Assembly (NCBI GenBank): GCA_030437565.1
Contig: CP129291.1
Coordinates: 1,302,001-1,366,000, forward strand
DNA from: Terrilactibacillus sp. S3-3
GTDB lineage: Bacteria; Bacillota; Bacilli; Bacillales; Sporolactobacillaceae
Direction of reading: 5' to 3'
DNA length: 64,000 bases
Part shown: positions 18,192 through 61,796 of the stretch, in pieces
Position numbering within the stretch: the first letter of the stretch is position 1
How the letters are laid out: the number at the start of each line of letters is the position of its first letter
Notes under the pieces: generated by a model
The model's database searches: none
The model's input: only the letters and a program-made list of their open reading frames with translations
What the model was told of the DNA's origin: nothing
Program-made: the position numbers and the translations under genes

Positions 18192-18347
18192 ATGCGCACA
18201 AAACCATTACACTGGACGAAAATGGTCTACAAGCCGAATGAAACGAAAGAAGCTTTTCTTCTGCTGGAAATGAGTGACGAATCTCCGGATCCGACTCTTT
18301 TTCGAACAGAAAACATACCTGCGGAAAAAAGGAAACACAGGAGATAA
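18192..18347 (+). CDS. Small hypothetical protein (51 aa)
   Basis: Uninterrupted 51-codon ORF from ATG 18192 with AGAAGGGA about 9 nt upstream. It begins MRTKPLHWTKMVYKPNETKE and ends in a basic tail (AEKRKHRR). No membrane segment. I do not recognise it. It sits between dtd and repeat copy 1, whose first base lies only 4 nt after the stop. It could be real or chance; codon use looks ordinary. Confidence 0.4.
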   Translation: MRTKPLHWTKMVYKPNETKEAFLLLEMSDESPDPTLFRTENIPAEKRKHRR

Positions 18348-18350
18348 GCT

Positions 18351-18593
18351 GAAACTTCAATCAGTGGGGGCTTTTCGACGCACAGGAAGTGCTAGTGCAG
18401 GCGTTGCGACAGGACGTCGCGTTTTTAGCCTGCTTCATCCCCGACTGATTGTTAGCTCTTGCCCACAGGACGTGGCGGTTTTAGTCTGTGTTCCTAAGAT
18501 CAGGCTTTTACGGGCAGTTATCTCCTACCTATCTTCTTCGAACTCATTAAAGCCTTGAGGCGGGAGTCTTACTGCCCGTTAATGCGGGATAAA
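18351..18593 (+). repeat. Dispersed structured repeat, copy 1 (variant)
   Basis: First of three related intergenic repeats. It opens GAAACTTCAATCAGTGGGG and closes CCCGTTAATGCGGGATAAA. The outer stem CAATCAGTGGGG (18358-18369) pairs with CCCCGACTGATTG (18439-18451). Between these arms are extra hairpins GCAC-AGGAA-GTGC (18380-18392) and GCGAC-AGGAC-GTCGC (18406-18420), the latter nested in GCAGGC / GCCTGC. A third, CCAC-AGGAC-GTGG, follows at 18463-18474. The 3' half is a long stem, GGGCAGT-CTCC... / ...GGAG-ACTGCCC. Compared with the other copies, a segment has been lost between two AGGA hairpins and a new module gained inside the first stem. Confidence 0.85.
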
Positions 18594-22348: not shown

Positions 22349-22552
22349 AAATGAAAGAGAGTCCTGAGGTGTTCGTCGATAGCCGATATGTTTTGACCGA
22401 ACATTTTTGAATCGGGAGCTTAGAGTTTTCGCTCGGAGTATAAGCCTCATAGCGTTGGTGGACATACAATTAGCGAAGCAGGGCACCCACCTGCTGGAGA
22501 GCGGGTTTCAAAACGACGGTTGAAAACGGCACATTTGGGGCTCTCTTTTCTA
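22349..22552 (+). ncRNA. ssrS: 6S RNA (6S-1/BsrA type)
   Basis: About 200-nt RNA predicted between aspS and the next gene, the location of bsrA in B. subtilis. The ends close on each other (AAAGAGAG near the 5' end with CTCTCTTT at 22541-22548). Conserved-looking internal segments include GAACATTTTTGAATCGGGAGC and the 3'-side AAGCAGGGCACCCACCTG. 6S RNA mimics an open promoter and sequesters sigma-A RNA polymerase in stationary phase. The identification combines location, closing stem and motif; I could not run a covariance search. Confidence 0.8.
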
Positions 22553-39860: not shown

Positions 39861-40080
39861 TTTTATCCCGCATTAACGGGCAGTAAGACTCCCACCTTAA
39901 GGCTTCAATGAATTCGAAGAAGGTAGGTGGGAGATAACTGACCGTAAAAGCCCGATCTTAGGAACACAGACTAAAGGCGCCACATCCTGTGGCAACGTCT
40001 GTGTGACCCACGTCCTGTGGGCAAGAGCTAACAATCAGTGGGGGAGAAAGAAAACTCCCACTGATTGAAGTTTCACTTTA
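39861..40080 (-). repeat. Dispersed structured repeat, copy 2 (opposite orientation)
   Basis: Same family as 18351 and 61583, inverted. Plus-strand order: TTTATCCCGCATTAACGGGC, the CTCCCACC / GGTGGGAG long stem with inner GCTTC / GAAG, then CCACATCCTGTGG (39980-39992) and CCCACGTCCTGTGGG (40007-40021), and the terminal hairpin AATCAGTGGG / CCCACTGATT, ending GAAGTTTCACTTTA. On the minus strand the two small loops read CAGGATG and CAGGACG. The second is nested in ACACAGAC / GTCTGTGT. Best-preserved copy; all stems pair. Confidence 0.88.
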
Positions 40081-40123
40081 TGTTACAATAATTGTGTTGA
40101 TTATGATGAAGGAGGACGTATGA

Positions 40124-61548: not shown

Positions 61549-61582
61549 AAATAAAAGATATGGGTAAATTTTCGCCATAAAG

Positions 61583-61796
61583 TGAAACTTCAATCAGCGG
61601 GGGTTTTCTTCCCTCCCCACTGATTGTTAGCTCTTGCCCACAGGACGTAGGTCACACAGACGTTGCCACAGGATGTGGCGCCTTTAGTCTGTGTTCCCAA
61701 GATCGGGCTTTTACAGGCAGTTATCTCCCACCATGCTTCTTCGAATTCATTGAAGCCTTGAGGTAGGAGTCTTACTGCCCATTAATACGGGATAAA
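61583..61796 (+). repeat. Dispersed structured repeat, copy 3
   Basis: Same orientation as copy 1. TGAAACTTCAATCAGCGGGG, terminal hairpin CAATCAGCGGGG / CTCCCCACTGATTG, then CCACAGGACGTAG (61638-61650) and the nested GACgttGCCAC-AGGAT-GTGGCgcctttaGTC (61659-61690). The long stem GGCAGT-CTCCCACC / GGTAGGAG-ACTGCC with inner GCTTC / GAAGC follows, ending CCCATTAATACGGGATAAA. Lies between the comEC terminator and holA. Confidence 0.88.

What the first reader, a model, noticed from the sequence alone, without database searches (positions are those of the whole stretch)
61583..61796. Intergenic repeat family whose hairpin loops carry the CsrB-type CAGGA(N)G motif
Three related elements (18351-18593, 39861-40080, 61583-61796) each carry two or three small hairpins whose loop and closing pair read CAGGAC-G, CAGGAT-G or CAGGAA-G on one strand: 18380, 18406, 18463 (plus); 39980, 40007 (minus); 61638, 61663 (plus). 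CAGGA(U/C/A)G in hairpin loops is the repeat described for E. coli CsrB, the RNA that titrates CsrA. Firmicutes have CsrA, antagonised by the protein FliW, and to my knowledge no CsrB-like RNA. A multicopy element that, if transcribed in the right orientation, acts as a CsrA decoy or as a portable CsrA site would be new. The link to CsrA is inference; copies have only 2-3 sites, and the loop is one base shorter than the SELEX consensus ACARGGAUGU.
Basis: partly seen in the sequence, partly recalled or inferred. Interest (0 to 1): 0.75.

Follow-up and report, generated by a model that had tools for sequence, protein, structure and literature searches.

The report
Known hairpin repeat nested in mobile DNA
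The three elements are copies of a small mobile DNA repeat that carries a second, already catalogued hairpin unit (Rfam Bacillaceae-1); its resemblance to a CsrA-trapping RNA was proposed in 2014, and comparison of over a hundred copies mostly speaks against that role and for a repeat kept in shape as DNA.

Summary
All three loci carry paired hairpins with CAGGA(C/T/A)G loops. They match Rfam RF01690, Bacillaceae-1, which is modelled on the opposite strand. The genome holds about 40 such elements and 57 Bacillaceae-1 hits.

Anatomy: a ~157-bp hairpin repeat flanked by ATAAA, widespread in Bacillaceae and relatives and present empty in this genome at least 20 times. A separate ~60-bp Bacillaceae-1 unit sits in its hairpin loops, at several sites and in both orientations across genomes. 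The 18 kb copy carries two.

The CsrA-decoy idea is not new: Gardner and Eldai published it for the reverse complement of Bacillaceae-1 in 2014. Evidence against it here: the first G of GGA is replaced in 53 of 218 loops; stems show no strand preference (26 G-U versus 19 A-C) and few wobbles (1.6% versus 7.6% in tRNAs); gene orientation is unbiased; rRNA operons almost always transcribe the other strand; csrA-less genomes keep copies. In its favour: csrA is present here, and Bacillaceae-1 genomes usually have csrA, though this is partly taxonomic.

Best reading: a DNA-level, non-autonomous mobile hairpin. Mobiliser and loop reader are unknown.

The parts
61577..61796 (+). Composite mobile repeat, copy 3: ~157-bp host repeat (ATAAA flanks at 61577-61581 and 61792-61796) split by a Bacillaceae-1 unit
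61637..61703 (-). Bacillaceae-1 unit (RF01690, 75.5 bits, model strand); CAGGA loops lie on the + strand
39862..40081 (-). Composite mobile repeat, copy 2 (ATAAA at both ends)
39955..40021 (+). Bacillaceae-1 unit (RF01690, 80.4 bits); CAGGA loops lie on the - strand
18344..18593 (+). Composite mobile repeat, copy 1, with two Bacillaceae-1 units (left flank ATAAG, right flank ATAAA)
18377..18433 (+). 57-bp Bacillaceae-1 unit (GACGCAC subtype) inserted in the loop of the host 5' hairpin; RF01690 match 18379-18443 on the - strand
18461..18494 (+). Second Bacillaceae-1 unit in the usual middle site, internally deleted (28 columns missing), leaving one fused CAGGAC hairpin

Best explanation
Each locus is a nested mobile DNA repeat. 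SHOWN: (a) the outer part is a ~157-bp palindromic repeat flanked by ATAAA, which exists without any CAGGA hairpins at least 20 times in this genome and in many other genera; (b) the CAGGA hairpins belong to a separate ~57-66-bp unit, Rfam Bacillaceae-1, found in hairpin loops of that repeat at several positions and in both orientations, and also elsewhere, including tandem arrays and rRNA operon spacers; (c) the stems evolve by Watson-Crick-preserving changes with few wobbles and no strand preference, and the loop consensus is A-[G/C]-G-A-N, not strictly GGA. INFERRED: the hairpins are selected as DNA (single-stranded or cruciform hairpins recognised by an unidentified recombinase acting in trans, or kept perfect by template switching) and spread as non-autonomous elements; the ~40 copies here arose because one loaded host repeat was copied. 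The resemblance to CsrB would then be coincidental, or at most an occasional side effect when the CAGGA strand is transcribed.
For: Own-genome elements have sharp ends and unrelated flanks; empty host repeats in the same genome and in Lysinibacillus align around the insert; >100 stretches in other genera carry the host's first 25 bases; insertions at different offsets and in both orientations; six head-to-tail units of 63 bp at G000:C1:820242-820622. 109 distinct copies: 1632 Watson-Crick, 26 G-U, 19 A-C (p = 0.37), wobble 1.6% against 7.6% in 36 tRNAs (p = 5e-13). Own copies: 14 G-U, 13 A-C. GGA is no better conserved than the rest of the unit in own copies (4.3% changed, p = 0.46). No gene-orientation bias, 0 of 30 inside a long ORF.
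Against: No mobilising enzyme was identified: Y1 transposases are absent from genomes with 26-55 copies and no copy lies beside the four candidate RAYT genes. Loop positions 1, 3 and 4 are 93-99% conserved, so something reads the loop, and an RNA-binding protein is not excluded. The inserted unit varies about half as much as the host in own copies (4.0% against 7.9%), more constraint than a dead passenger should show. In rRNA operons the orientation is strongly biased and the unit abuts mature rRNA 5' ends. The sampled copies were mostly high-scoring, which favours perfect stems.
Confidence: 0.6

Rival explanations
1. CsrA decoy or portable CsrA site (first reader; Gardner and Eldai 2014): the CAGGA strand is transcribed and its paired GGA-loop hairpins bind a CsrA dimer.
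For: Commonest loops are identical to the CsrB repeat CAGGA(U/A/C)G; csrA is in the genome; Bacillaceae-1 occurs in 74 of 207 csrA-positive but 3 of 141 csrA-negative genomes of the class, a stronger association than for the GGA-less host repeat (29 of 207 against 6 of 141; p = 0.026 for the difference); 103 of 109 copies keep at least one GGA loop.
Against: First G of GGA replaced in 53 of 218 loops, whereas GGA was 100% conserved in CsrA SELEX (PMC7652899); an amplified CGA-loop subfamily in csrA-positive G089; the opposite strand is transcribed in nearly all rRNA-operon copies; csrA-negative G475 (7 copies, GGA mostly kept), G052 (10) and G053 (6) still carry copies; no strand bias in the stems; within-genus association with csrA not significant (p = 0.057, or 0.29 with one clade collapsed).
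Confidence: 0.15
2. RNA element on the opposite (RUCCU) strand, as first annotated by Weinberg et al. 2010, with a role in rRNA operons such as leader or spacer processing.
For: RF01690 abuts the 5' end of 16S in eight G230 and three G043 operons and of 5S in G444, G453, G471 and G053, RUCCU strand sense.
Against: G138 has the opposite orientation upstream of 16S; most copies are dispersed intergenic repeats with no orientation bias; no wobble excess on the RUCCU strand (19, against 26 on the other strand); many operons of one genome may derive from one insertion.
Confidence: 0.15
3. DNA site for a host protein (nucleoid, replication or repair factor reading cruciforms), spread by selection rather than by mobility.
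For: Watson-Crick-preserving covariation without strand preference and conserved loop bases.
Against: Copy number varies from 0 to 57 within one order, and nested and tandem insertions look like mobility, not a fixed chromosomal site system.
Confidence: 0.1

Closest known systems
Rfam RF01690 Bacillaceae-1 RNA (Weinberg et al. 2010)
   Same: The hairpin unit is a full-length match above the gathering score; two RUCCU-type loops on the model strand; some copies next to rRNA genes
   Different: Evidence here favours a DNA-level repeat over a strand-specific RNA; copies in this genome are nested in another repeat
Reverse complement of Bacillaceae-1 as CsrA-binding sRNA (Gardner and Eldai 2014, PMC4333381)
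   Different: Copy-level tests here (GGA variability, strand symmetry, rRNA orientation, csrA-negative carriers) mostly count against it
bcr1 repeats of the Bacillus cereus group (PMC6542083, PMC3446304, PMC2267715)
   Same: Similar length (147-167 bp), stem-loops, dispersed intergenic copies, associated with a TTTAT motif (ATAAA reversed)
   Different: No sequence match to the host repeat among B. cereus group plasmids; bcr1 is described as restricted to the B. cereus group, whereas this host repeat spans many other genera
Bhal-1 stem-loop family of Bacillus halodurans (PMC2267715)
   Same: 74 bp, 36 copies, structured; possibly the same unit
   Different: Sequence identity not checked here
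REP palindromes mobilised by RAYT (Y1) transposases
   Same: Small dispersed hairpin DNA repeats, non-autonomous
   Different: No GTAG/CGTC foot seen by eye; Y1 transposase genes absent from some high-copy genomes, and no copies beside the RAYT-like genes examined

Membership tests
Rfam RF01690 Bacillaceae-1 | Covariance-model score above the gathering threshold over the full model | tested here: met
   80.4, 75.5 and 57.6 bits against 35
Rfam RF01690 Bacillaceae-1 | It is a transcribed RNA on the model strand | tested here: inconclusive
   No wobble excess on either strand; RUCCU strand is sense in most rRNA operon copies; no transcript data available
CsrB/CsrC/RsmZ decoy RNAs | GGA in hairpin loops, conserved | tested here: not met
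   First G of GGA kept in 165 of 218 loops; C, T or A in 53, while the following G and A are nearly fixed
CsrB/CsrC/RsmZ decoy RNAs | Discrete sRNA gene with promoter and terminator | tested here: not met
   No promoter-hairpins-terminator arrangement at 61.4-61.9 kb or at the six-unit array; consensus scans only
CsrB/CsrC/RsmZ decoy RNAs | csrA in the genome | tested here: met
   G000:C1:2788600-2788760, split over two frames
CsrB/CsrC/RsmZ decoy RNAs | Binds CsrA | not testable with these tools
   Needs a gel shift or CLIP
bcr1-type repeats | Flanked by TTTAT (ATAAA) motif | tested here: met
   ATAAA or a close variant at both ends of the 39 aligned own copies; tandem copies share one ATAAA
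bcr1-type repeats | Sequence homology to bcr1 | tested here: inconclusive
REP elements | RAYT/Y1 transposase in the genome and REP copies beside its gene | tested here: not met
   No Y1 match in G265, G199, G072, G297, G230; no copies within about 1 kb of four RAYT-like genes

The most novel reading that the evidence does not exclude
Bacillaceae-1 is not an RNA family but one of the smallest mobile DNA elements known: a ~60-bp two-hairpin unit with A-[G/C]-G-A-N loops that enters the loops of other hairpin repeats and rRNA spacers, moved in trans by an unidentified enzyme that reads the hairpin loops.
Probability: 0.35. Interest if true: 0.6.

Novelty: new member of a known kind. Interest (0 to 1): 0.4.

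Why it matters
Bacillaceae-1 is listed among the more abundant sRNA families (PMC9029176) and has been put forward as a CsrA sponge of Gram-positive bacteria. If it is a DNA-level mobile hairpin, counts of bacterial small RNAs and the search for CsrB-like RNAs in Firmicutes should be revised, and a new small mobile-element system would await its enzyme. If the CsrA link were true after all, the csrA-negative carriers and the CGA-loop subfamily named here are natural controls.

Tried and rejected
Promoter/terminator scans of a window copy and of the six-unit array showed no sRNA gene layout. RAYT/Y1 transposases as mobiliser: presence does not track copy number and no copies lie next to the RAYT-like genes. 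Host-repeat match around IS200/IS605-type tnpA genes: none. bcr1 homology through plasmids: none. One Bacillaceae-1 consensus in phages: none. Host-repeat sequence strings in the paper library: none. csrA co-occurrence was first taken as support for the decoy idea; the GGA-less host repeat shows the same direction of association, so part of it is taxonomic, but the association of Bacillaceae-1 is stronger and that remainder is unexplained.

Full report
OBSERVATION. Rfam identifies Bacillaceae-1 (RF01690) in all three, each time on the strand opposite to CAGGA: 39955-40021 (+, 80.4 bits), 61637-61703 (-, 75.5), 18379-18443 (-, 57.6; gathering score 35). The genome (one contig, 3.6 Mb, completeness estimate 76%, so probably many indel errors) holds about 40 copies of the 214-bp element, most 83-94% identical to the query, and 57 RF01690 hits. 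A csrA gene is present, matched in two adjacent pieces in different frames.

PRIOR WORK. The proposed mechanism is published: Gardner and Eldai 2014 (PMC4333381) found two CsrA-binding motifs in the reverse complement of Bacillaceae-1, noted that the discoverers were not confident of the strand, and proposed CsrA-binding sRNAs in Bacillales. A search for papers naming both Bacillaceae-1 and CsrA returned no experimental follow-up in the library.

ANATOMY. In relatives of the same family the query matches almost only as positions 1-50 and 120-214, without the middle. The missing middle is Bacillaceae-1. The outer part is a ~157-bp repeat, ATAAA-GTGAAACTTCAATCAGTGGGGG...CCCCCACTGATTGTTAGTTGAACCAATCGGGCTTTTACGGGCAGTT...ACTGCCCGTTAATGCGGG-ATAAA, whose first 25 bases occur exactly in more than 100 stretches from Niallia, Cytobacillus, Lysinibacillus, Oceanobacillus, Sporosarcina, Peribacillus and others. 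This genome itself holds at least 20 nearly full-length empty copies. The alignment of the three window copies with empty ones shows the insert directly: at 61 and 39 kb the unit takes the place of a few host bases at TTGAACC; at 18 kb a second, 57-bp unit (18377-18433) sits in the 5' hairpin loop, and the middle unit has lost 28 columns. Among 89 host repeats in named genomes at least eight carry Bacillaceae-1, four with it in one orientation and four in the other, at different offsets. Some junctions lose a few host bases and no target duplication is visible, so the insertion chemistry is not classical. Across 39 own copies the flanks are random and ATAAA lies at both ends; tandem host copies share one ATAAA.

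DOES IT BEHAVE LIKE AN RNA? From 109 distinct copies of other genomes, 16 stem pairs each: 1632 Watson-Crick, 26 G-U, 19 A-C, 67 other. A-C on one strand is G-U on the other, so 26 against 19 (p = 0.37) gives no strand preference; own copies give 14 against 13. Wobbles are 1.6% of standard pairs, against 7.6% in 36 tRNAs of the same loci. Many pairs switch fully (for example C-G, T-A, A-T at one outer pair) with almost no wobble intermediates. This fits selection or correction at DNA level. Both strands fold about equally well as RNA and as DNA. Caveat: most sampled copies were top-scoring, which favours perfect stems.

IS GGA THE CONSERVED CORE? No. The loop is A-[G/C]-G-A-N: position 2 is G in 165 of 218 loops and C (42), T (8) or A (3) otherwise; positions 3 and 4 deviate in 7 and 6 loops. 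53 of 109 copies have at least one loop without GGA, 6 of them in both. In csrA-positive G089 most copies of one subfamily carry CGA in both loops. CsrA SELEX gave 100% conservation of GGA (PMC7652899). In own copies GGA varies as much as the rest of the unit.

CONTEXT. Of 30 own copies none lies inside a long ORF; flanking genes are 11 ++, 9 --, 6 +-, 4 -+ relative to the CAGGA strand, no bias. In rRNA operons the unit abuts the 5' end of 16S (eight G230, three G043 operons) or of 5S (G444, G453, G471, G053), with the RUCCU strand sense; G138 has the CAGGA strand sense. A decoy in these operons would need the other strand. Operons of one genome are not independent events.

CO-OCCURRENCE WITH csrA. 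In the class sample Bacillaceae-1 is in 74 of 207 csrA-positive and 3 of 141 csrA-negative genomes; in the order sample 146 of 286 and 3 of 13. The GGA-less host repeat shows the same direction, weaker (29 of 207 and 6 of 141; csrA-negatives beyond those listed were inferred from absence in the list of positives). Stratified within six genera the association is not significant (p = 0.057; 0.29 with one clade collapsed). csrA-negative G475, G052 and G053 keep 7, 10 and 6 copies. This is the best remaining support for the CsrA idea and is not fully explained away.

MECHANISM. Shown: a nested, multicopy, precisely bounded hairpin repeat. Inferred: mobility in trans and DNA-level recognition of the hairpins. 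No enzyme was found; Y1 transposases do not track the copies. The conserved loop bases and the rRNA position are real features that the mobile-repeat reading does not yet explain.

VERDICT.

Noticed in passing
L092 1043-1423 (G000:C1:820242-820622): Six head-to-tail Bacillaceae-1 units with a 63-bp period, each with two CAGGA loops; no promoter- or terminator-like site belonging to the array found.
   Followed up: partly
L103-L113 (G230, G043) and L136, L138, L139, L147, L156, L163 (G444, G471, G453, G053): Bacillaceae-1 lies flush against the mature 5' end of 16S or 5S rRNA, nearly always with the RUCCU strand sense; a possible role in rRNA processing is unexplained.
   Followed up: partly
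L175 (G625:C1:1935451-1935901): The empty host repeat occurs in tandem, neighbouring units sharing a single ATAAA.
   Followed up: partly
L061/L062 (G000:C1:2788600-2788760): csrA is read in two frames; together with the 76% completeness estimate and many broken ORFs this suggests indel errors in the assembly.
   Followed up: no
window 22358-22545: 6S RNA (RF00013, 96 bits).
   Followed up: no
L237 (Bacillus sp. SD088): A Bacillaceae-1 unit that appears to carry a second Bacillaceae-1-like unit inside its own stem (nested within nested).
   Followed up: no
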